Origin: Helicobacter sp. 16-1353
GTDB taxonomy: Bacteria > Campylobacterota > Campylobacteria > Campylobacterales > Helicobacteraceae
Reading direction: 5' to 3'
NCBI RefSeq assembly: GCF_003288815.1
Contig: NZ_NHYM01000001.1
Span: 186,001-250,000 of the forward strand
DNA: 64,000 bases
In this document: positions 4,403 to 50,757 of the stretch, piece by piece
Layout of the letters: every line of letters begins with the position of its first letter
Numbering within the stretch: the first letter of the stretch is position 1
Notes under the pieces: model-generated
What the model saw: only the letters and a program-made list of their open reading frames with translations
Database searches by the model: none
Told to the model about the DNA's origin: nothing
Made by a program: the position numbers and the translations under genes

Positions 4403-5908
4403 TTATATAGCCCTATATGATAATGCTTCCAATAAATGCTCTTTTTTAATATCAACACTTTTAGATAAATCCGCTATAGTTCTACTAAGTTTGATGATTT
4501 TCTGTCTTCCGCGATTGCTTAAACCATATCTTTGGGTGGCTAGATTTAAGAAATTTATATTATCGTTATCCAATATACAAAATTTATCGATTTCACTATC
4601 ATTTAGTTTTCCATTTGGTTTAGTTTGGAAACGATTTTTTTGCATAATAAATGCATCTAAAACTTGTTGAAATAATTCTTTGGAACTTATTCTTTCATTA
4701 CTATGCGTTTCTTCCATCTTTATAAAAATATCAATACGGTCGCGAAATGGCTCAGAGATTGTATTTTTATATTGTTTAATATCATTATCCCTACATCTAC
4801 ACTCTTTAGTTGTGCTATAGAGATTCCCACAAGGACAAGGATTCATCGCACCTATAAATAAAATTGATGAGGGATAGGTAAATTTAACGCTAACTCTTGA
4901 TATGCTAAGCTCATTATTTTCTAGTGGTTCGCGTAAAGATTCTAGTATGCTTTTATTAAAATTGGGTAATTCATCAAAAAATAAAATCCCATTATGACTT
5001 AAACTTATCTCGCCCGGTCGTGCCTCATTTTGTAAAACTGAGCCTAGTATAGACGCCTTAGAGCTACTTTGATGTGGATTCCTAAAAGGGCGATTTGGGG
5101 AATAAATGCTTTCTTTATTATTTAATGCCTCAATTTTTACACACTCGCACATCTCCTCAAAACTCACGGGCGGGAGAATATATCGCATTCGTTTTGCAAT
5201 CATACTCTTACCACAACCCGGACTGCCCTCAAATATTATATTATGCATTCCTGTAGCCGCGATTAATGCCGCTCTTTTGGCTATAACCTGACCTTTAATA
5301 TCATAAAAATCCTCTTTAAAATTATCATCATAATAATATTTTGTATCATTTACTTTTATATGTTTAAAACTAAAATCATATTGTTTTGCTTTATTTTGTG
5401 GATTTTTAAGAACTTCTATTGATTCAAGTAGATTTGAAGCATAATAAATATTTAGATTAGGGATATTTGAGTAGAGATTCTCACCTTCTTTTGGAAGTAA
5501 AACATTACTATTTGGATAGGTTTGAGATATTTCCAATAAAAGTGAATAGATAATATGGGAATCTTTTATAATGCCATCAAGCCCTAATTCACCAAATGCA
5601 AACCAATTTGATAAATCAATATCTTGCTTTTGTAATGCAATTAAAAGTGCTATGGGTAAGTCGAAATGGCTACCATTTTTCTGCATATCTGAGGGGGAGA
5701 GATTTATTGTAATCTTAAAGTTTAGGCTTTCAAAATTATTATTTGCTAATGCACCGCTAATCCTCTGCTTAGCCTCTTGTATGGAATTTCCTGCTAATCC
5801 TGTGATAGTAAAGGTAGGCAAACCTCTTTGAAATGTAGCCTCAACTTGGACTATTTTTGCACCTATCCCAAATCTCGTTGCACAAAGAAGTTTTTTAACC
5901 ATAGCCAA
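4403..5908 (-). CDS. comM: YifB/ComM-family AAA+ ATPase
   Basis: This 501-aa protein has a Lon-protease-like N-terminal fold (about residues 1-180), a Mg-chelatase-like AAA+ core, and a C-terminal helical domain. Walker A is GSPGCGKS at about residue 227; ILFFDELPNF is the Walker B region; GAMNPCPCGNLYSTTKECRCRD carries the family's four-Cys cluster in pieces. In other bacteria ComM is a hexameric helicase that aids branch migration in natural transformation. The second Met (residue 3) could be the start. Confidence 0.9.
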   Translation of the reverse strand: MAMVKKLLCATRFGIGAKIVQVEATFQRGLPTFTITGLAGNSIQEAKQRISGALANNNFESLNFKITINLSPSDMQKNGSHFDLPIALLIALQKQDIDLSNWFAFGELGLDGIIKDSHIIYSLLLEISQTYPNSNVLLPKEGENLYSNIPNLNIYYASNLLESIEVLKNPQNKAKQYDFSFKHIKVNDTKYYYDDNFKEDFYDIKGQVIAKRAALIAATGMHNIIFEGSPGCGKSMIAKRMRYILPPVSFEEMCECVKIEALNNKESIYSPNRPFRNPHQSSSKASILGSVLQNEARPGEISLSHNGILFFDELPNFNKSILESLREPLENNELSISRVSVKFTYPSSILFIGAMNPCPCGNLYSTTKECRCRDNDIKQYKNTISEPFRDRIDIFIKMEETHSNERISSKELFQQVLDAFIMQKNRFQTKPNGKLNDSEIDKFCILDNDNINFLNLATQRYGLSNRGRQKIIKLSRTIADLSKSVDIKKEHLLEALSYRAI

Positions 5909-21967: not shown

Positions 21968-23365
21968 TTAGAGAGTGGCTTTTGGATGGGACTTTAAATC
22001 TTTTAGTTTATTCTTACTTTCACCCTTATTTAGAATCCTATGGAAAAAATAATAAATTATTAGAGCAATTCGCCAAATATGCGTTTTTAAGCTCCTCTTA
22101 TATGGCTTTAGGAAAATCTCTTTTTTGGGCGTTTCTTTGTGAGTTTTATAATCTTTTAGTATTTCTTTCCCCATAGATTCTAGCATTGAATAATCCTCTA
22201 AAACCCGCCTTCTAGCCTCCAAAATCGCCCCAAAATGCTCTTCATAAAAGTTGGATTCTAAGAGATTTTCTAGCCTCTTTATGGAATCTTCCACATTATA
22301 AATATCGATTTTTATAAACGAATTTTTTGGAAAATACCGCTCGATGTTCCCCGCCCCAAAGTAAATCGGCATCGCATAGCCAAGATAAGCGTCCATAATC
22401 TTTTCGCTGAAATAGTCGCTCTGGGCGTTGTTTTCGATAGCAATTGTGTATTTATAGGGCAGAATCCCGTCCTTTTTCTCCGCTAACTCATTTGGCGTTT
22501 TATTGCCATAAAAGTCGATTTTATCCCCAAGGTGGCTATTTTGAAGGGCTTTGACAAACTTCATTCTATCTAAATGCCCCGCAAACGCCTTTTTATCAAA
22601 ACTCGCAATGCAAGAAATCTCCTTAATCTTGCGTGGAATGGGGAGATTGCAAAGCTCGTTATATGGCATATTTGGAGCGAATAGAAAATACATCATCGGC
22701 GGATATTTGATGAAAATGGTGTTATGGAATTTTGCTTTACGGGGCGAATCTACTTCGTGTGAATGGGGATTTGAAGCGACTTGAATTGTAAGTTGGTTTG
22801 GATTTGTCGCAGGTGAGTTTAAAAAAGGCGAGTTTGAGTGCTGGAATCTTGTATTATCTAGCTGCTGCCCCCCCCCATTTTGGCTATTTCCGCCGTATTT
22901 AAGCACATTAGAATCTAACGCAAAATCCGCAGAATCTAAACTCGAATCTAGTGCGGAATCTAAATCTAACACAGAATCCAACGCAGTTTTAAACTCCACT
23001 TTTTCCAAGCAAGGAGCCTTAAAAAGCCCCTCGTTAAATGCAAATACAACATCGCAATGCGCGTAAGTCTCTGGCTTTATCGCCCACTCGTTTTTAAATG
23101 GTATGCCATACTGCTTAGATTCCTTTATATACGGCTCTTGCTGGAGTGCGAAAACTCGCCTAGCCCTTACCTTATGGGGTTTTATGGTCTTATTTATGAT
23201 TAGCACATAGTCGCAGTCAATGGGCTTTTCATCAAACCCGCGGAATTCAAAACTTAACTCTTCCCCACTTGGAGCGATAAACTTGCTATCGCCATTTTTT
23301 GAGAGATTTTTAATTTGACTTTTAAAGCCCTCCCTATAATCGCTTAAAATACACACTTTTATCAT
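21968..23365 (-). CDS. GT10 alpha-1,3-fucosyltransferase-like, phase variable (ON)
   Basis: A 465-aa glycosyltransferase whose C-terminal half matches family GT10. IAIENNAQSDYFSEKIMDAYLGYAMPIYFGAG (in pieces: AIENNAQSDYFSEKIMDAYL, PIYFGAG) is the GDP-fucose-binding signature, followed by FIKIDIYN. Such enzymes build Lewis-type antigens on Helicobacter LPS. Residues 129-153 form an Asp-Ser-rich insert (LDSALDSSLDSADFALDSN). A G9 tract (C9 on the plus strand at 22868-22876) encodes Gly164-166 and keeps the frame open, so the gene is on as sequenced. It diverges from a second phase-variable glycosyltransferase, 54 bp apart. Confidence 0.85.
   Translation of the reverse strand: MIKVCILSDYREGFKSQIKNLSKNGDSKFIAPSGEELSFEFRGFDEKPIDCDYVLIINKTIKPHKVRARRVFALQQEPYIKESKQYGIPFKNEWAIKPETYAHCDVVFAFNEGLFKAPCLEKVEFKTALDSVLDLDSALDSSLDSADFALDSNVLKYGGNSQNGGGQQLDNTRFQHSNSPFLNSPATNPNQLTIQVASNPHSHEVDSPRKAKFHNTIFIKYPPMMYFLFAPNMPYNELCNLPIPRKIKEISCIASFDKKAFAGHLDRMKFVKALQNSHLGDKIDFYGNKTPNELAEKKDGILPYKYTIAIENNAQSDYFSEKIMDAYLGYAMPIYFGAGNIERYFPKNSFIKIDIYNVEDSIKRLENLLESNFYEEHFGAILEARRRVLEDYSMLESMGKEILKDYKTHKETPKKEIFLKPYKRSLKTHIWRIALIIYYFFHRILNKGESKNKLKDLKSHPKATL
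22868..22876 (-). repeat. Poly-G tract (G9) in fucosyltransferase gene
   Basis: Nine consecutive C on the plus strand (G on the coding strand) lie inside the open frame, codons 164-166. Length change by one base would truncate the protein before the GT10 domain. Confidence 0.9.
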
Positions 23366-23419: not shown

Positions 23420-25095
23420 GTGAAAATTTCAGTTACAATCATAGCAAAAAACGCCCAAAAACACTTAAGCGAGTGTTTGCAAAGTTTAAGCGAGTTTGAT
23501 GAGATAATCTTGCTAGATAATGAGTCTAGCGATGAGACGAGAGAAATCGCTAAAAGCTACCCAAATGTGCGGATTTTTAGCACGGAGTTTATCGGCTTTG
23601 GGGCGATGAAAAATCTAGCGATTAGCTATGCTAAAAATGAGTGGATTTTCTCCATTGATAGCGATGAAATCGCCGAGCCGGACTTGCTAGAAGAGATAAA
23701 AAATCTAAAATTTAAGCAAAATGAAATCTATGCGATTTCTCGCAAAAATCTCTATAAAAATGAGTGGATAAAGGCGTGTGGCTGGTATCCGGACTATGTC
23801 AATCGTATTTTTAATAAAAATTTTACGAAATTTAATGATAACGAGGTGCATGAGAGCGTAACAATCCCTAAAAACGCCAAGATTCTAAGGCTAGATTCCC
23901 ATATCAAGCACTATGCCTATGGCTCAATCTCCCAGCTCTCGCATAAAATGGAATTCTACAGCACACTTTGGGCGAGAAATAACGCTCACAAAAGTGCCAC
24001 GCCATTAAAGGCGATTGTTCGCTCTATGTGGTCGTTTGTGCGGAATTATCTTTTCAAAAAGGGGTTTTTATACGGCTACAAGGGCTTTATCATAAGCTTT
24101 TTTAATGCAAGTGGTGTGCTGGTCAAATATATGAAACTCTATGAGCTAAAAACGCGTGAAAACTCCGTCTCGCTCATCATTACGACCTATAATCAAAAGG
24201 AATCTTTAAGGGCGGTTTTGGATTCCACACTGCGACTAAATAAAATGCCAAGTGAGATTCTAATCGCCGATGACGGGAGCAAGGCTGATACGAGGGAGCT
24301 AGTGGAATCTTACAAGGCGAAATTCCACATTCCGCTAATTCACATCTGGCACGAAGATAGGGGCTTTCGGCTCTCACACATTCGCAATTTGGCGATAGAT
24401 TCCGCAAATGGCGAGTATATCATTATCATCGATGGCGATATGATTTTAGAGCCAAACTTTGTAAGCGACCACTTGGAAAAGGCTAAGAAAGGCGTTTTCT
24501 TGCAAGGAAGTAGAGTGATACTAGATGAAAAAGTGAGTAAGGAAATCTTGGCTTTAACTTCGCAAAATGGCGGGAATGGCTTAAGAGAAAATGGCGGAAA
24601 TAACGCAGATAATGGGGGGGGGAGCAAGTAGGTAGAATTCAAATAGATAGAATCCAAAAGGATACAAATCAAGTTGCTAGAATTGAAGTCGCTAAAATTT
24701 TGGCTAAACAAAGTTCGCTTAAGGCGAAACGATGCAAGATTCTATCTACGATTATCTACAAAACTTCCAAAATAAATGCGAAATTTTTTGACAAAAAGGA
24801 CTTTATAAAGGGCGTTAGGGGCTGCAATATGAGCTTTTTTAAAGAGGATTGCAAACATATCAATGGCTTTAATGAGGATTTTCAAAGCTGGGGGCGGGAG
24901 GACAGCGAGTTTGTAGCGAGATTTTTGTTTAATGGCGGGGAGTTTCAGCGACTGAAATTTGCCGGGATTGCCTACCACATTTATCACAAGGAAAATAACA
25001 AGGATTGCTTGGAATCTAATCATCAAATTTATTTGGATACGATTAAAAATCGCCTAAAAACTTGCCAAAATGGGATTGTGAAAAACTACAGATAA
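23420..25095 (+). CDS. Two-domain GT2 glycosyltransferase, phase variable (OFF)
   Basis: The GTG start at 23420 opens a 403-aa frame that stops just after a G9 tract (24614-24622). Residues 1-250 resemble WaaE-type glycosyltransferases (VTIIAKNAQKHLSECLQSL, WIFSIDSDE). A second GT2 domain starts near 253 (SLIITTYNQKESLRAVLDS, IADDGS, IIDGDM). The missing C-terminal part is encoded downstream in another frame to 25095, with CNMSFFKEDC, GREDSEF and YHIYHKEN. With G10 the frames join without a stop and give 558 aa. So this is an intact gene in the off phase. It probably modifies LOS or capsule. Confidence 0.85.
24614..24622 (+). repeat. Poly-G tract (G9) in GT2 gene
   Basis: Nine G residues encode Gly399-401 and are followed two codons later by TAG. 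G10 (or G7) restores the downstream frame. Confidence 0.9.
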
Positions 25096-37183: not shown

Positions 37184-38763
37184 ATGATGAGGGAAAACAA
37201 TGAAATATGGGGCTGGGAGTTCATTAAACACACCAAAAATTTTAGCAAACTTAGTAAAAAATATATTCGTAAAAATGTTTATGGGGGGGGGCAGAATCTA
37301 GTCTAGAATCTCCAAAATACACTCTAGAATCTAGAGCAAAATCTGTCCTAGAATCTCTAAAATGTAAAGCAAAATCCACTCTAAATCTAGCCCACCAAAA
37401 GGCACAAGATTCTAAGCAAGATTCTAGATTCTATAGCAAAATAAAGAGTTGGATTCCAGCCACTTTATTAAATCTATCAAATCTCTTAAATCCCCGCCAC
37501 TCAAATAAATCTCACAATCCAAATTCCCCCACGCCACGCCAAAAAGTAGCTCCAAACCATATCCTTTATCCACTATTTTTGCTTCCACTTATCCTAACGC
37601 CATTTTCGCCATTTTATGCCTATATCACTTGCGTTTTTGTTATGATTGGGCTATCTAAATTTATCACAAAAGAATTTAGGATTTTGCTTGGGCTAACGCT
37701 AGTTTTTAATATCGCAGTTATCTATGCAAGTAAGTTAAGTTTCCATGTTGGGCTAGATTTCGATGATGATTTTACTAGATATTATCAAAACTACCTTGAT
37801 ATTTATGATGGAATCAGCGGGGCAATGTTTTATTTTGGTGGTGAATTTGAAATCGGGCTTGGAGTGTTTTATAAGATTCTATCCATATTGTTCCCTAAAC
37901 TCCTCCCAAGTAGTGTGCTACTTTTTACCGCTTTAAGCGTTTGTCTATTATTTTATATCTGGCTTGAAGTGTATATTTTAAAGTATTTCAAGGCATACCA
38001 GAGAGCCGCATTAGTTGCATTTTGTATGTTCTTAGATATTTTTATGGAAACTATCGGGCTGACTAGGCAGTGTTTTAGCACCATATTTTTATTATATGCA
38101 TTTTCTAGCAAGGATTGGCGTGGTAGAGTGGGATTTTTAGCTATTGCTATGATTTTTCACATAAGTGCGATATTTATATTTACGACGTTTTATGTTATTA
38201 AATACTTTCCAAAAGTTAGCCTATTTTTATTACTTTGTTTCACGCTATTTTTTATGCAAGATTCCGCGAGTGTGAATGCTACAATTAATGGCATAGCATT
38301 ATTTCTAAAAGGATTTTTACCAGATAAAGCCATCACATACTTTACATATTATATAAATGACGCAGGATTTACGCCCTATTATTTCGTGTATATGCCAATT
38401 ATGAAGTTTATCTTAAGCCTATGTGTGCTTTTCTCTATCTTTATGTTATGCCCAAAAGATAAGATTCTAAAGCATTTTAAGATGTATATTCTAATTTGCT
38501 TTTTTATATATTTTACACATATTCTGCCGTCTCGCTCGGTTTTCTTGCTTACTAATATGCTATTTTATTTCGTGGTTTTTGTGAGCTTTAGGCGTTTTTT
38601 TAATCTCACGCTATTCTTTTTCTTCCCATATTTTATATTTAGAATGTATAAATGGCTCATATCGCCTGATGTAGCCACAGATTACACTTCTACTCATCTC
38701 TTTTTCTGGTATCCAGAGAGTGGCATTTATCCATTTTACTATCTATTTCAAGGAGTTTTATAA
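37184..38763 (+). CDS. EpsG/Wzy-like polysaccharide polymerase, phase variable (OFF)
   Basis: The ATG at 37184 opens a frame that ends in TAG soon after a G9 tract (37283-37291). With G10 the frame continues without a stop to 38763, giving 526 aa. The N-terminal 33 residues (IWGWEFIKHTKNFSKLSKKY) are basic. A 60-residue linker after the tract contains ESSLES-type repeats from GAATC clusters. From about residue 130 follow some ten hydrophobic segments resembling EpsG/O-antigen polymerase proteins, with LDFDDDFTRYYQNYLDIYDG as the loop. A TTG at 37579 might give a shorter product even when off. It overlaps the Wzz-like gene by one base (TAATG). Confidence 0.8.
37283..37291 (+). repeat. Poly-G tract (G9) in polymerase gene
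   Basis: Nine G residues encode Gly34-36. In the present length the frame closes at TAG five codons later; G10 or G7 opens it. Confidence 0.9.
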
Positions 38764-41669: not shown

Positions 41670-41830
41670 AGATTTGTAAAAATTGCTAAAGCAATTTTTC
41701 ATAAATTTCTTAGTCTCCGTGCGTTAGCATTGGGGGGATAAGGGGAGCGATTTCGCCTTTGCCACGAAGTGGCAAATTCATCATTCAAGCCCCCTTGTCC
41801 CCCCCCCCCTTTTTTTTTACTAAACAAGAC
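41670..41830 (-). repeat. Dispersed hairpin repeat, copy 2
   Basis: Read on the minus strand this matches 12283-12480: TTTAGTAAA, a homopolymer stretch, GACAAG, GGGCTTGAATGATGA, TTTGCCA with a hairpin, then CTAACGCACGG. The stretch that is short in copy 1 is expanded here to A9G11. Boundaries are approximate. Confidence 0.7.
41799..41818. repeat. C11-T9 homopolymer tract
   Basis: Eleven C followed by nine T, in non-coding DNA inside copy 2 of the dispersed repeat. Such tracts are slippage-prone. Confidence 0.85.
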
Positions 41831-45881: not shown

Positions 45882-45946
45882 TTATTTATTTTCATAAATC
45901 TATCTTGGGTTTTATTGTAAAAATATATCAAAAAAATTATAATTTA
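45882..45946 (+). repeat. Shared promoter block, copy B
   Basis: Near-identical to 37061-37125. TTGTAA (45915-45920) and TATAAT (45938-45943) are separated by 17 bases. It lies 51 bp upstream of the PIN-ankyrin ATG, much as copy A lies upstream of the polymerase gene. Confidence 0.85.
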
Positions 45947-45993
45947 ACTTTCAATATTAAACTATTTACAAAAAAACACAAAGGGTAAAAAAT

Positions 45994-47248
45994 ATGGAAT
46001 TCAATGAAGCAATAAACGGGGGGGGGATTTTTTAGAGCCTTAAATAATTACGCAAAAAAAGACAAGAAATCTCCTACTTTAATAGCAATACCTGATACTT
46101 CCGCACTACTTAAAAATATACGACTCTTATATAGCTTATTAGAGGATTATGATTTTGTGCTAATCCCAACAACGGTAATGAGGGAATTGACACACATAAA
46201 AGATAGGAAAAAATCTCATAATTCCACTTCCGCCGATAGACAAAATGCAAAAATGGCATGGGAAGTTCTAGTTACTTTAAATGATTGCATACTCACATAT
46301 TCTACAAAAGTTTATAAAATTGATAATGAAAAATACAAGATTCCAGATAGCACACAAAAAGGGGCAAATAATATAAAAAACGACCATAAGCTTATGGCAT
46401 TAGCGGATGATATTTCACGGAAAAATCTTGGTAAAGTTCATATCGTGCATAATGATGTGGATTTTGCCGTGTATAGTGGAGTGGCTATAACAATTGCGGA
46501 GTATTTTGCAAAGCGAAATAAAATAGCAGATTACACAGATATAGATAAGCTAGATAAGGAATTTAATAATTTAGAAAGTCTTAGAGAAATAATCAAGCGA
46601 GTAGATATAAATGCGTATTTAGAAAATGGAGCGACGCTATTAATAAATACCATAAAGTGCAATATGCCCGAACAAATCAAAGCTAGAGGCGGAGTTAGAA
46701 TACCAGATAGAAAAGTGATAGAGAAAATAAAATTTCTCTTAGACAATGGGGCAGATTTAAACAAAAACGACAATGGATACCATTGCTTACCACCATTATC
46801 ACATAGCATACAATTAAGAGAATCCTATGGCTTTGATATTTTTAAATTGCTAATAGAGCGGGATTGCGATATAAATAAGGCTTCAAGGGACGATAGCAAT
46901 CCAAAGAAAATAGGAGGCTTAAACGAGGGAAATACGCCACTTATGATAGCTTGTTTCCACTCTAAAAAGAAATTTATTCATATGCTTTGTGAGCGAGATG
47001 AGATTTCTATAAATCAGCAAGATAATAATGGCTTTACCGCTTTAATAAAATGTGCTCTCAAAAGATACGAGACAATAAAGCAAAATAAGCCCCACGAGCT
47101 AAATGACGAGCTATACGAATATATACGCGCCCAGCCTAAAGTAGATATATCTATTAGAGACAGGAATAACCACACAGCACAAGATTGGATAAAAAGAGGT
47201 GATTTCTTAAAGCAAGGGAAAAGCTATAAGGAAAATGAAAAATGGTAG
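45994..47248 (+). CDS. PIN-nuclease/ankyrin-repeat protein, phase variable (OFF)
   Basis: The ATG at 45994 (with AAGGG before it) starts a frame that reaches a G9 tract at codon 9 and stops at TAG three codons later. With G8 the frame stays open to 47248 and gives 417 aa. The N-terminal domain is a PIN nuclease: D34 (IPDTSALLKN), E64 (IPTTVMREL), D130 (NDHKLMALADD) and D154 (HNDVDF) are the four acidic residues expected. From about 195 ankyrin-type repeats follow (KFLLDNGADLNKND, GNTPLMIACFHSKKKF, NNGFTALIKCAL). It probably cuts RNA under control of the ankyrin part. It overlaps the radical SAM gene by seven bases. Confidence 0.85.
46018..46026 (+). repeat. Poly-G tract (G9) in PIN-ankyrin gene
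   Basis: Nine G at codons 9-11. G8 or G11 opens the long frame; the present G9 does not. Translation could only restart downstream (for example GTG at 46157) without the first catalytic Asp. Confidence 0.9.
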
Positions 47249-48120
47249 AGCGAATATGTATATCAATTAATAATATCTGCAATCTCAAATGTCGCTATTG
47301 CCATTTCCTAGAAAAGAACTCAGTGGAAAATACAAAAAAACTGGGCTATAAGCCGATGGATATTTTTAAGATTTTAGATAATGTAAAGCAATATGTAGGG
47401 CATTATAAACACATTTTTAAGATTGGATTTATCGGTAATGGTGAGCCATTATTAAATATCAATGATATAAAAAAATACTTGCTTTATATTAAGGATTATG
47501 AAAATATCCGCACTTATACTATTACAAATGGGACGATTGACTTAAAAGATAGCGATTGGGCTTTTTTAGAAAACCACAATATGAATGTCGGCTTTTCGCT
47601 TGATGGCTATAAGGAATTACACAATCTATATCGATGTGGCTCATTTGATAGAGTGATGAAAAATATCCAAAAATATAAGAATCTAACTAGGCGATACCCC
47701 ACGCTAAATGCCACCATAGGGGCAGAATCCTTAGAGAATAAAGAAAAAATTATAAGCTTTTTCGCTCATTTTGATACTAAAATCACATTCTCGCGAATGA
47801 TTGGCAAATATGGAATCTCCCTAGAACAATATAGGGAATTTATGGAGTTCGCACAAAAGCGACTAAGCGTAAGGAATGGCGGATTTGACTGCACGATGTA
47901 TGGTGGCTTATGTGGAGTAGGAGTGAATAATTATTTTTTCAGCAATGGCAAGGTGTATTTATGTGGGAATTGTATAGATTTGCCACATATCAAAAACAGC
48001 GACACTGGCTTTTTTGAACTAGAAAAAATTGCTTTAAAATTTAACAGAAGCAAATGCTACAAAGAAATTTTAGAAAATCAAAGCATTTGTAAAAATTATC
48101 AAAAGGTAGGAATCCTATGA
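47242..48120 (+). CDS. SPASM-type radical SAM enzyme
   Basis: A 292-aa radical SAM protein with the cluster motif CNLKCRYC (C13, C17, C20) and the GNGEP motif near 76-80. The C-terminal Cys group (CTMYGGLCGVG, YLCGNC, then CYKE and CKN) fits a SPASM or twitch domain holding extra Fe-S clusters. SPASM enzymes mature peptides or modify proteins and small molecules; the substrate here is unknown. The ATG overlaps the PIN-ankyrin stop (ATGGTAG) and the stop overlaps the next start (ATGA), so translation is coupled throughout. Confidence 0.88.
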   Translation: MVERICISINNICNLKCRYCHFLEKNSVENTKKLGYKPMDIFKILDNVKQYVGHYKHIFKIGFIGNGEPLLNINDIKKYLLYIKDYENIRTYTITNGTIDLKDSDWAFLENHNMNVGFSLDGYKELHNLYRCGSFDRVMKNIQKYKNLTRRYPTLNATIGAESLENKEKIISFFAHFDTKITFSRMIGKYGISLEQYREFMEFAQKRLSVRNGGFDCTMYGGLCGVGVNNYFFSNGKVYLCGNCIDLPHIKNSDTGFFELEKIALKFNRSKCYKEILENQSICKNYQKVGIL

Positions 48121-49250
48121 GAATTGCACTATATGGACTTCCCACCGCTGGGAAAACTTTTATTTTAGATGAGATTAGGCGAGGGGCTTTGCAGATTTTA
48201 GAGAATCTGCAAAATCAAGGCAAGATTTCACAAGAGATTCCACATTTAGAGGTTTTGCAAGGAAGCTATTTATTAAAGCAACTAGCTCCAAATTTTGAAT
48301 CCCTAAGCGAACAAGAACGCAATCAAATACGAATAAAACTAGCCCAAAATCTTACTAAAAAAGATGATTTTATAATCGATGGGCATTATGCCTTTGGAGA
48401 GCAAGTCGTTTTTACAAAAGCAGATGGTGCTTTGTATGATGTATTTTTGTATTTATATATTTCCCCAGAGATTCTAAAAGAGCGAATAGGGCAGTCAAGT
48501 AAAAATCAGCGATATTTAAAATACGACATTAAATCGTGGCAAGATATGGAGATTGAGGGATTGCGGACATATTGTCACAAAAACAATAAAGATTTTTATG
48601 TGCTAGATAATCCAGCACAAGGCTATTTTAGTGATATTAGCGTGGTGCTAGAATTTATAAATAAGATTCTAAACGGATTTAGTTGCTACAAGTTTGCCAA
48701 AAAATGTGCGGATATTATTTTACAAAAATCCACAAGTGATACAATCTCTTTATTTGATGGCGATAAAACTTTGATACTTGAAGATTCAAATGAGATTCTA
48801 GGCTGTAAAACGCAAGTTTTTAATGGTGATTTTTATAGCGGATTTCAATCGTGGAGACATCACTGCGAGTTGACAAAATTTATAAAAAATCTTAATAGAC
48901 GGAATCTTGGAGAATTAATCTCTAAGAATCTATCATTTAATCGCAAGGTTTTAGATGGCATTAGCAAGGATTCTTTTATATTGACCTCCGGAGTTTGCGA
49001 GATTTGGGAGCAAATATCTAAACAAATCAATATGCCATTTTTTGGCGGAATGCAAATGTGTGCGGACACAAAATTTTTTATCGCCAAAATACTTAGAGAA
49101 AATGGCAAAAATGTCATAGCTTACGGCGATGGAGCGAATGATTATTTTATGCTAAAAGAATCTAATAGGGGGCATATTGTCTTGCGAAAAAGTGGAAATA
49201 TGAGCCGTTCGCTTAAAAATATAGATTTAGAGGGGCTACATTTTGTTTGA
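48117..49250 (+). CDS. Fused P-loop kinase and HAD phosphatase
   Basis: A 377-aa two-domain protein. Residues 1-190 are an adenylate-kinase/thymidylate-kinase-like P-loop domain: Walker A GLPTAGKT (7-14), FIIDGHYAFGE as the Walker B-like segment, LYISPEILKERI as lid region. Residues from about 205 form a HAD phosphatase: LFDGDKTL (DxDxT), ILTSG, a Lys in TKFFIAKIL, and AYGDGANDYFML. The pairing of a kinase with a phosphatase suggests processing of a nucleotide-like molecule. It overlaps both neighbours. Confidence 0.85.
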   Translation: MRIALYGLPTAGKTFILDEIRRGALQILENLQNQGKISQEIPHLEVLQGSYLLKQLAPNFESLSEQERNQIRIKLAQNLTKKDDFIIDGHYAFGEQVVFTKADGALYDVFLYLYISPEILKERIGQSSKNQRYLKYDIKSWQDMEIEGLRTYCHKNNKDFYVLDNPAQGYFSDISVVLEFINKILNGFSCYKFAKKCADIILQKSTSDTISLFDGDKTLILEDSNEILGCKTQVFNGDFYSGFQSWRHHCELTKFIKNLNRRNLGELISKNLSFNRKVLDGISKDSFILTSGVCEIWEQISKQINMPFFGGMQMCADTKFFIAKILRENGKNVIAYGDGANDYFMLKESNRGHIVLRKSGNMSRSLKNIDLEGLHFV

Positions 49251-49776
49251 GATTAAAAAAACAAAAAGAATAAATCGCTTGATTGACATCACAAAATCTG
49301 ATTCAATGGTCGTGGGAGCAAAACTAGCCCTAGCACATATGCAATTAGGCTATTTGCTTGGGAGGCAAATGAGCGGATTTAAGCCGAGTGAAACCACTAT
49401 AATTGCGATATTGCGAGGTGGGATATTTTTCGCTGAGGGGATTTATTTTAAGCTAAATTGCAGATTTGAGATTTGCGACCCTAAAAGCGATGATTTGATT
49501 ATCCCAGCGACAAAAAATATAATTTTAGTAGATTCTGTGATTAACACTGGGAAAACGATAGAAAGGATTTATCAAAAAATACATATGGAAAATAGGCAAA
49601 AAAATATCTATGTGGCAAGTTGCGTGGTAAATAAAAAAGCCCTAGAAAATATCACATTTAAGGAGAATCTATACACCATTCGAGTATCAAATAACTCTTT
49701 TGTAGGCAGCAATATCACTAAACAAAATGGCGACATTGGACCAGATACCACAATGAGATTATTTAATGAATTTTAA
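49243..49776 (+). CDS. Phosphoribosyltransferase
   Basis: A 177-aa type I phosphoribosyltransferase, closest in look to uracil phosphoribosyltransferases. The PRPP-binding loop is IILVDSVINTGKT (about 95-107), where the usual second acidic residue is Ser, and IAILRGGIFFAEGIYF is the PPi-loop region. TTG at 49243 is the start and overlaps the upstream stop by eight bases. It ends the four-gene operon and would attach a base to PRPP or release it. Confidence 0.85.
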   Translation: MFEIKKTKRINRLIDITKSDSMVVGAKLALAHMQLGYLLGRQMSGFKPSETTIIAILRGGIFFAEGIYFKLNCRFEICDPKSDDLIIPATKNIILVDSVINTGKTIERIYQKIHMENRQKNIYVASCVVNKKALENITFKENLYTIRVSNNSFVGSNITKQNGDIGPDTTMRLFNEF

Positions 49777-49935: not shown

Positions 49936-50757
49936 ATGAAAGATTTACATATACACACAAAATATTCCGACGGCGAGTTTGACGAAAATGAGATTCTTGA
50001 AAAAATCATAAGTGCAGGGATTACAGAATTTGCAATTTGCGACCATGATACGATTGAGGGCTCAATGAAAGTTTGTGAAAAAATCAAACAACTTAATCTT
50101 GACATTATTTTTCATTCGGGTATTGAAATTACAAGCAGAATCAATGATATTTTTGATGGAATTAGCGTTCATTTGCTGGTTAGAGATTTTCAATTTGACG
50201 ATAAAGTTATATTAGATGCCATCTCTATTATGAAACGCAACCGATTAAAAAACCTTGATTTAATGCTGGAAGGTGTTAAGAAAGATTATAATGTTGAAAT
50301 TCCCAAGCAAAGAATTGAAGAAGTTTTAAAAGAAACAAATTCAATAGGTGAGCCACATGTTTATAAATTGCTATGTGAAATTAAAAATATTGATGAAACT
50401 TACTTTTATGATAAGACTATAAAAAATTTAAAAACAGAACATCTTAAAATTGACGCTGCTTGGCTACTTGAAAATTTTAAAGGACATCAAGGTTACATCA
50501 CCCTTGCTCACCCAATAAAGATAATGAAAGACTACAATTTTTCTTATGCTGATATTGAAAAAATTGTAGAACATTTACATGGTTATGGTCTTAAAGGTTT
50601 GGAGGTTGAATATAGTAAACACACAAAAAAAGATATTGCCGAATTCTCAAAAATCGCAGATAAATTTAATTTAATCAAAACCCCCGGTAGCGATTTTCAC
50701 GGACCAAATGTAAAACCAAATAGATTTTTGGGCGTTTGTCAAAAACAAGATTCTTAG
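49936..50757 (+). CDS. PHP-domain phosphoesterase
   Basis: A 273-aa metal-dependent phosphoesterase of the PHP family. Metal-binding motifs are DLHIHTKYSDG (3-13), FAICDHDTIEG (about 33-43), GIEIT and the C-terminal GSDFHG. It resembles YciV/RnmV-like 3',5'-nucleoside bisphosphate phosphatases, which also trim RNA ends. Its DNA lacks GAATC/GATTC clusters, unlike the nearby accessory DNA, so it may have been acquired. Whether it belongs to the upstream operon is unclear. Confidence 0.85.
   Translation: MKDLHIHTKYSDGEFDENEILEKIISAGITEFAICDHDTIEGSMKVCEKIKQLNLDIIFHSGIEITSRINDIFDGISVHLLVRDFQFDDKVILDAISIMKRNRLKNLDLMLEGVKKDYNVEIPKQRIEEVLKETNSIGEPHVYKLLCEIKNIDETYFYDKTIKNLKTEHLKIDAAWLLENFKGHQGYITLAHPIKIMKDYNFSYADIEKIVEHLHGYGLKGLEVEYSKHTKKDIAEFSKIADKFNLIKTPGSDFHGPNVKPNRFLGVCQKQDS

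What the first reader, a model, noticed from the sequence alone, without database searches (positions are those of the whole stretch)
45994..46166. G9 tract at codon 9 switches the PIN-ankyrin gene off; G8 restores 417 aa
In the given sequence ATG-led translation stops at TAG after MEFNEAINGGGIF. Reading with one G fewer joins the ATG and ribosome-binding site to an open frame that carries the first catalytic Asp (IPDTSALL), which any internal start would lose. This shows the gene is intact and switchable, not decayed.
Basis: seen in the sequence. Interest (0 to 1): 0.8.

Follow-up and report, generated by a model that had tools for sequence, protein, structure and literature searches.

The report
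Poly-G switch on a PIN-ankyrin gene
A run of nine Gs near the start of a Helicobacter-family gene for a predicted RNA-cutting enzyme puts the gene out of frame, most likely as a random on/off switch of a well-known kind, but here it controls the first gene of a mobile four-gene set that I found no description of.

Summary
The ATG at 45994 runs through a G9 tract (46018-46026) into TAG 46033. The only long frame behind the tract (46016-47248) carries an intact PIN nuclease plus ankyrin repeats; its first usual start, GTG 46157, lies past the first catalytic Asp, and it has no further stop. Chance is excluded: 48 G/C runs of 9 or more in 450 kb of this genome, about 0.1 expected. That is the signature of a Helicobacteraceae phase-variation repertoire; a published (G)9 gene in H. 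canadensis varies G8-G10 in reads. Switching itself is inferred: no reads or second isolate were available.

New points: (1) The gene heads an overlapping operon (PIN-ankyrin, radical SAM, nucleotide-kinase/HAD, phosphoribosyltransferase) on a low-GC island, with relatives in Lachnospiraceae, four viral contigs and four other Helicobacter genomes. (2) No relative has the poly-G, but two Helicobacter copies carry T13-T14 runs 42 nt before the start, so switching may have arisen twice. (3) In the G9 register, poly-G, three bases, TTTTAG reproduces the prfB +1 frameshift layout and would enter the PIN frame, so "off" may be leaky. Overall: a new member of a known kind of switch, on an undescribed operon.

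The parts
45980..45985 (+). ribosome-binding site AAAGGG, 8 nt before the ATG
   Evidence: sequence
45994..46035 (+). short ATG-led frame MEFNEAINGGGIF, ended by TAG 46033-46035
46013..46015 (+). TAA that closes the PIN frame directly before the tract
46018..46026 (+). G9 tract, the putative phase-variation tract
   Evidence: excess
46018..46036 (+). prfB-like layout: G-run, ATT, TTT, TAG, A (possible +1 frameshift site)
   Evidence: motif description in PMC12421855
46016..47248 (+). open frame of the PIN-ankyrin protein (P0001 from 46025)
46088..46462 (+). PIN_4 domain; first catalytic Asp codon 46094-46096
46829..47080 (+). ankyrin repeats (Ank_2 best stretch; repeats extend to both sides in the model)
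47242..48120 (+). radical SAM protein, overlaps the PIN-ankyrin stop
48117..49250 (+). P-loop nucleotide-kinase-like plus HAD phosphatase protein
49243..49776 (+). phosphoribosyltransferase
49936..50757 (+). PHP-domain protein on the same low-GC island; not part of the conserved four-gene set

Best explanation
The G9 tract is a translational phase-variation (contingency) tract. Slipped-strand mispairing during replication would add or remove Gs at high frequency. In one of three registers the ribosome passes from the ATG into the PIN-ankyrin frame; in the other two it stops within five codons after the tract. The sequenced isolate is in a non-productive register. The controlled protein is a predicted PIN ribonuclease with ankyrin repeats, the first gene of a horizontally acquired operon whose genes overlap one another, so the switch may also lower translation of the radical SAM, kinase-HAD and PRTase genes. 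The operon is most likely a phage- or mobile-element-borne defence or conflict module. Shown: frames, intact gene, operon, island, genome-wide tract excess. Inferred: slippage, polarity, defence role.
For: Exactly one register connects ATG and PIN frame. G/C runs of 9 or more exceed chance several-hundred-fold, few of 7-8; 122 in the genome and 93, 25, 12 and 59 in the four congeners. Of 48 runs in 450 kb, 40 read G on the sense strand; 32 precede an open frame of 100 or more codons, 19 joined to an upstream start and 13 not, a mixed on/off set. Of 10 of those 32 frames scanned, 8 gave Pfam hits: autotransporter, TonB receptor, EpsG-like, three methyltransferases, glycosyltransferase, PEP-utilising enzyme. 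H. canadensis: 29 coding regions with such tracts, all varying in reads, a (G)9 one from G8 to G10 (PMC2823697). Gene intact: Pfam, 55% identity to L045, codon positions, fold model. Operon recurs.
Against: No length variation was observed: one assembly, no reads. None of the 10 start regions of relatives inspected has a poly-G, so the tract is lineage-specific and its conservation is untested. G9 is at the short end of the tracts that H. canadensis lists. Defence is inferred from company, not tested: PADLOC hits are weak and partial.
Confidence: 0.75

Rival explanations
1. Sequencing or assembly error: the true tract has another length and the gene is simply expressed.
For: Draft assembly in 32 contigs; homopolymers are error-prone; no reads are held.
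Against: 13 of the 32 tracts with a long frame behind them are out of register in the sample; length miscalls at phase-variable tracts would themselves reflect mixed templates.
Confidence: 0.1
2. Programmed +1 ribosomal frameshifting of the prfB type: poly-G acts as internal Shine-Dalgarno-like stretch, three nucleotides later tRNA-Phe slips on TTTT at the TAG and enters the PIN frame. May also coexist with phase variation as a leak of the nine-G register.
For: Layout and spacing equal the prfB motif (consensus near AGGGGG, slippery run three nucleotides downstream; poly-T variants read by tRNA-Phe exist in 21 genomes; PMC12421855, passages). A +1 shift enters exactly the PIN frame. It is the only one of 48 tracts with TTT-TAG at that offset.
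Against: Stop is TAG followed by A, not TGA C. The genome's own prfB is in one frame. No relative conserves the site. Seen after the fact; a T-run before a stop is not rare in AT-rich DNA.
Confidence: 0.08
3. Pseudogene: the frameshift is fixed and the gene is on the way to loss after transfer from another lineage.
For: Foreign low-GC island, no read evidence, PIN-ankyrin and PHP genes not found in the congeners.
Against: Not one stop in 406 codons, catalytic residues kept, no excess of changes at codon positions 1 and 2 against the operon neighbours.
Confidence: 0.07

Closest known systems
Translational poly-G phase variation in Helicobacter and Campylobacter (e.g. the 16 translational candidates of H. 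canadensis, PMC2823697)
   Same: poly-G near the 5' end of a gene, one productive register of three, comparable tract length, genome-wide set of such tracts
   Different: the target is a nuclease-ankyrin gene of a mobile operon; 'ankyrin', 'PIN domain' and 'nuclease' do not occur in the main text of PMC2823697 or of PMC6321876
sabA of H. pylori (PMC2715451)
   Same: promoter poly-T of 13-19, like T14 and T13 upstream of the PIN-ankyrin genes L046 and L049
   Different: sabA combines promoter poly-T with a coding CT repeat in one gene; here poly-G and poly-T occur in different species' copies
prfB programmed +1 frameshift (PMC12421855)
   Same: G-rich stretch, 3 nt, pyrimidine slippery sequence, stop, +1 entry into the long frame
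   Different: TAG A instead of TGA C; unrelated gene; not conserved in relatives; untested
RNase L (ankyrin sensor plus ribonuclease)
   Same: architecture: ankyrin repeats joined to an RNase; top Foldseek rows
   Different: catalytic domain is PIN; in VIA-align other ankyrin proteins score as high, so the match is generic
Prokaryotic viperins (pVip)
   Same: radical SAM gene beside a nucleotide-kinase-like gene; weak PADLOC hit, E 1.4e-12
   Different: closer by sequence to sulfatase-maturating and peptide-modifying radical SAM enzymes

Membership tests
Translational phase-variable (simple-sequence contingency) gene | homopolymer in the 5' coding region whose length decides the reading frame | tested here: met
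Translational phase-variable (simple-sequence contingency) gene | tract longer than chance, in a genome with a set of such tracts | tested here: met
Translational phase-variable (simple-sequence contingency) gene | tract length varies within a population or between isolates | not testable with these tools
   no reads; no second genome of the species found; inspected relatives lack the tract
Translational phase-variable (simple-sequence contingency) gene | expression follows tract length | not testable with these tools
   needs bench work
PIN-domain nuclease | PIN domain with the conserved acidic residues | tested here: met
   Pfam PIN_4 over cut-off; Asp24 in 12 of 13 rows that reach that column (first copy in L075 has His; counted by eye), Glu54 nearly invariant, Asp144 invariant in 14 rows; model
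PIN-domain nuclease | metal-dependent RNA cleavage | not testable with these tools
   needs purified protein
Anti-phage defence system | match to a known system's proteins | tested here: inconclusive
   only weak, partial PADLOC hits
Anti-phage defence system | protects against phage | not testable with these tools
   needs plaque assays
prfB-type programmed +1 frameshift site | SD-like G-rich stretch three nucleotides before a slippery pyrimidine run and stop | tested here: met
   sequence against the description in PMC12421855
prfB-type programmed +1 frameshift site | TGA stop followed by C | tested here: not met
   stop is TAG A

The most novel reading that the evidence does not exclude
The tract is a double device. 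Its length is a random switch, and in the nine-G register the same run also serves as the internal Shine-Dalgarno-like part of a prfB-like +1 frameshift site, so the cell moves between full and translationally throttled expression of a PIN ribonuclease. That ribonuclease would be the effector of an undescribed phage-borne defence module in which the ankyrin repeats sense a product or partner of the radical SAM, kinase-HAD and PRTase enzymes. Related Helicobacter lineages would have put the same operon under stochastic control independently, by promoter poly-T tracts.
Probability: 0.1. Interest if true: 0.75.

Novelty: new member of a known kind. Interest (0 to 1): 0.5.

Why it matters
Phase variation in this family mostly concerns surface structures and restriction-modification (my recollection). 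A randomly switched ribonuclease at the head of a mobile operon would mean bet-hedging over an intracellular, possibly costly, conflict system: some cells armed, others not. The recurrence of a homopolymer run at the same gene in three species, by two different means, would make the cost of such systems testable from tract lengths in reads. The four-gene operon itself was not found described in my literature searches and deserves a defence assay.

Tried and rejected
Internal start: rejected, the first ATG/GTG/TTG in frame is GTG 46157, behind the first Asp.

Chance G9: rejected.

RNase L kinship from the Foldseek top rows: rejected as a family claim, since Notch, DARPin and other ankyrin chains score as high or higher in VIA-align. 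PIN proteins did not appear among the rows shown by either search because ankyrin fills the list; that is inconclusive, not negative.

Polynucleotide kinase-phosphatase idea for the kinase-HAD protein: not supported; the best matches shown are adenylate kinases and SerB-like HAD phosphatases.

Type IV effector reading from NCBIfam AnkG/AnkI (P0001) and AnkG/AnkH (relatives) hits: rejected, bits are far under the cut-offs and lie in the repeats.

Ankyrin-profile search of 398 genomes of the order: 183 genomes matched, but the listed matches outside this genome lie mainly in the ankyrin part of the profile, so it was uninformative for PIN-ankyrin; the radical SAM profile was used instead.

tRNA at the island: no tRNA in the window. 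Promoter scan: a TTGTAA-17-TATAAT site at 45915-45943, but the number of sites in the region is that of shuffles. Phage and plasmid records for the kinase-HAD protein: no match.

Full report
What is there. The window lies in a draft genome of 1.91 Mb in 32 contigs; the named records of its relatives with this operon outside the Firmicutes are Helicobacter, so I call it Helicobacteraceae. At 45994 an ATG with AAAGGG eight bases before it opens a frame that reads MEFNEAIN, crosses nine Gs at 46018-46026 and ends at TAG 46033. Directly behind the tract another frame is open for 406 codons to TAG 47246. That frame is closed by TAA 46013 just before the tract, and the third frame stops four codons after the tract, so only one register in three links the ATG to it. 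The first usual start codon inside it is GTG 46157.

The gene is intact. P0001 (tract to stop) matches PIN_4 and ankyrin models over their cut-offs. The first Asp (residue 24), Glu54 and Asp144 are kept across relatives: 12 of 13 rows that reach the column have Asp24, the first copy in L075 having His. It is 55% identical over 361 aligned residues to the Lachnospiraceae copy L045, whose contig begins inside the gene and so tells nothing of its N-terminus. Differences at codon positions 1, 2, 3 are 0.36, 0.24 and 0.53, like its three operon neighbours. An AlphaFold2 model (14 sequences, mean pLDDT 84.6, pTM 0.63) has a strand followed by a helix at the first Asp, as I recall for PIN domains.

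The tract is not chance. The window has five G/C runs of nine or more, about 0.02 expected, and none of seven or eight. A sample of 449,955 bases (window plus 20 stretches, about a quarter of the genome) has 48 such runs, about 0.1 expected, with one run of seven and five of eight. Genome-wide there are 122, and 93, 25, 12 and 59 in four congeners, the 25 from a 56% complete genome. Of the 48, 40 read G on the strand of the longest frame. For 32 an open frame of at least 100 codons follows, 19 joined to an upstream start and 13 not; the criterion is rough, and a few of the 19 rest on a start only 2-9 codons upstream. Ten of those 32 frames were scanned; eight gave Pfam hits (autotransporter, TonB receptor, EpsG-like below its cut-off, three methyltransferases, a glycosyltransferase, a PEP-utilising enzyme) and two gave none. 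In H. canadensis (PMC2823697; I read the abstract, sections 5 and 7, and passages), 29 coding regions with homopolymer tracts all vary in reads, including a (G)9 tract with a G8-G10 range.

The neighbourhood. The PIN-ankyrin, radical SAM, kinase-HAD and PRTase genes overlap by 7, 4 and 8 bases (coordinates) and lie, with a PHP-domain gene, on a stretch of about 0.30-0.35 GC between flanks of about 0.39-0.46. The PHP gene was not found in the four congeners, nor the FAD gene upstream of the island. With the radical SAM profile, 5 of 121 family genomes including this one carry the radical SAM gene, and in the four others the PIN-ankyrin gene lies before it (G464 I take to be the L048 record, as the locus coordinates fit). 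Named records: H. cinaedi, H. muridarum and two Helicobacter metagenome bins at 32-36% identity, but three Lachnospiraceae or Clostridiales records at 58-60%, so this copy is closer to the Firmicutes line, as expected after horizontal transfer. Four of five viral-contig matches have the whole set (the fifth, L079, is a 34% partial match that I did not examine). In L075 and L077 the set follows a lysin-like and a holin-like gene, and L076 and L078 have recombinase-like genes nearby; these four labels are my reading of the translations, from no family search. PIN-ankyrin copies of that group carry an N-terminal extension: Pfam HTH matches in four of four scanned, two of them over a cut-off, the others by alignment. 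The window gene has only a short tail with the tract in its place.

A possible second origin of switching. Of the 10 start regions of relatives inspected, none has a poly-G. The only T run of nine or more in L046 (8.9 kb) and in L049 (H. muridarum, 12.8 kb) lies 42 nt before the PIN-ankyrin ATG, T14 and T13. H. cinaedi has T8 at 37 nt, and L048 none. H. muridarum has 8 T runs of 12 or more in its genome, the L046 genome 68. In sabA of H. pylori a promoter poly-T of 13-19 varies (PMC2715451, passages). This was noticed after the fact and is a lead.

A caution on 'off'. In the nine-G register the message reads G-run, ATT, TTT, TAG, A. The prfB motif is a G-rich SD-like stretch, three nucleotides, a slippery pyrimidine run and a stop, with +1 slippage; poly-T variants read by tRNA-Phe exist (PMC12421855, passages). 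The +1 frame here is the PIN frame. Against it: the stop is TAG A, this genome's prfB has no such site, and no relative conserves it. Of 48 tracts only this one has the layout. I hold it as a rival or a second layer.

Function. The kinase-HAD model (pLDDT 85.3) matches adenylate kinases and SerB-like phosphatases. The radical SAM protein is nearest to sulfatase-maturating and peptide-modifying enzymes with only a weak viperin hit. The PRTase has a Pribosyltran match over the cut-off. PIN with ankyrin plus such enzymes on phage-like elements suggests a conflict or defence module; no known system was matched. Literature searches with combinations of PIN domain, ankyrin, radical SAM, phosphoribosyltransferase and defence terms returned nothing on such an operon (I saw the listings and, for PMC3710099, passages). 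The library lacks most subscription papers.

Verdict. Phase variation of a known kind is well supported but unproved, and it acts on an operon that I found no description of.

Noticed in passing
window 37283-37291 and 37294-38760: Another G9 tract before a 489-codon EpsG-like frame that has no start codon upstream in frame; likely a second out-of-register phase-variable gene.
   Followed up: partly
window 24614-24622: G9 tract near the 3' end of ORF 23420-24631, followed by a 156-codon frame in another register: possible C-terminal switching as described for H. canadensis.
   Followed up: partly
window 22868-22876 and 41799-41809: C9 inside ORF 21968-23365 (minus strand, in frame) and C11 in a stretch without a long frame.
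   Followed up: partly
L046, 42 nt before the ATG at 1080, and L049, 42 nt before the ATG at 5004: T14 and T13 runs upstream of the PIN-ankyrin start in two Helicobacter genomes; possible promoter phase variation.
   Followed up: partly
L044:3360-5994 and L075:2480-4983: Tandem PIN-ankyrin genes before the radical SAM gene; the first copy in L075 has His in place of the first catalytic Asp.
   Followed up: no
L075:7507-8679, L076:4998-5978, L077:7651-8733, L078:8101-9165, L043:8534-9619, L044:9080-10129: A similar protein follows the operon in these Firmicutes or viral-contig loci; the L078 copy matches the NERD domain (the only copy scanned). Not seen next to the window operon.
   Followed up: partly
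L048:2127-3946: In one Helicobacter bin the kinase is separate and the HAD part is fused to the PRTase instead.
   Followed up: no
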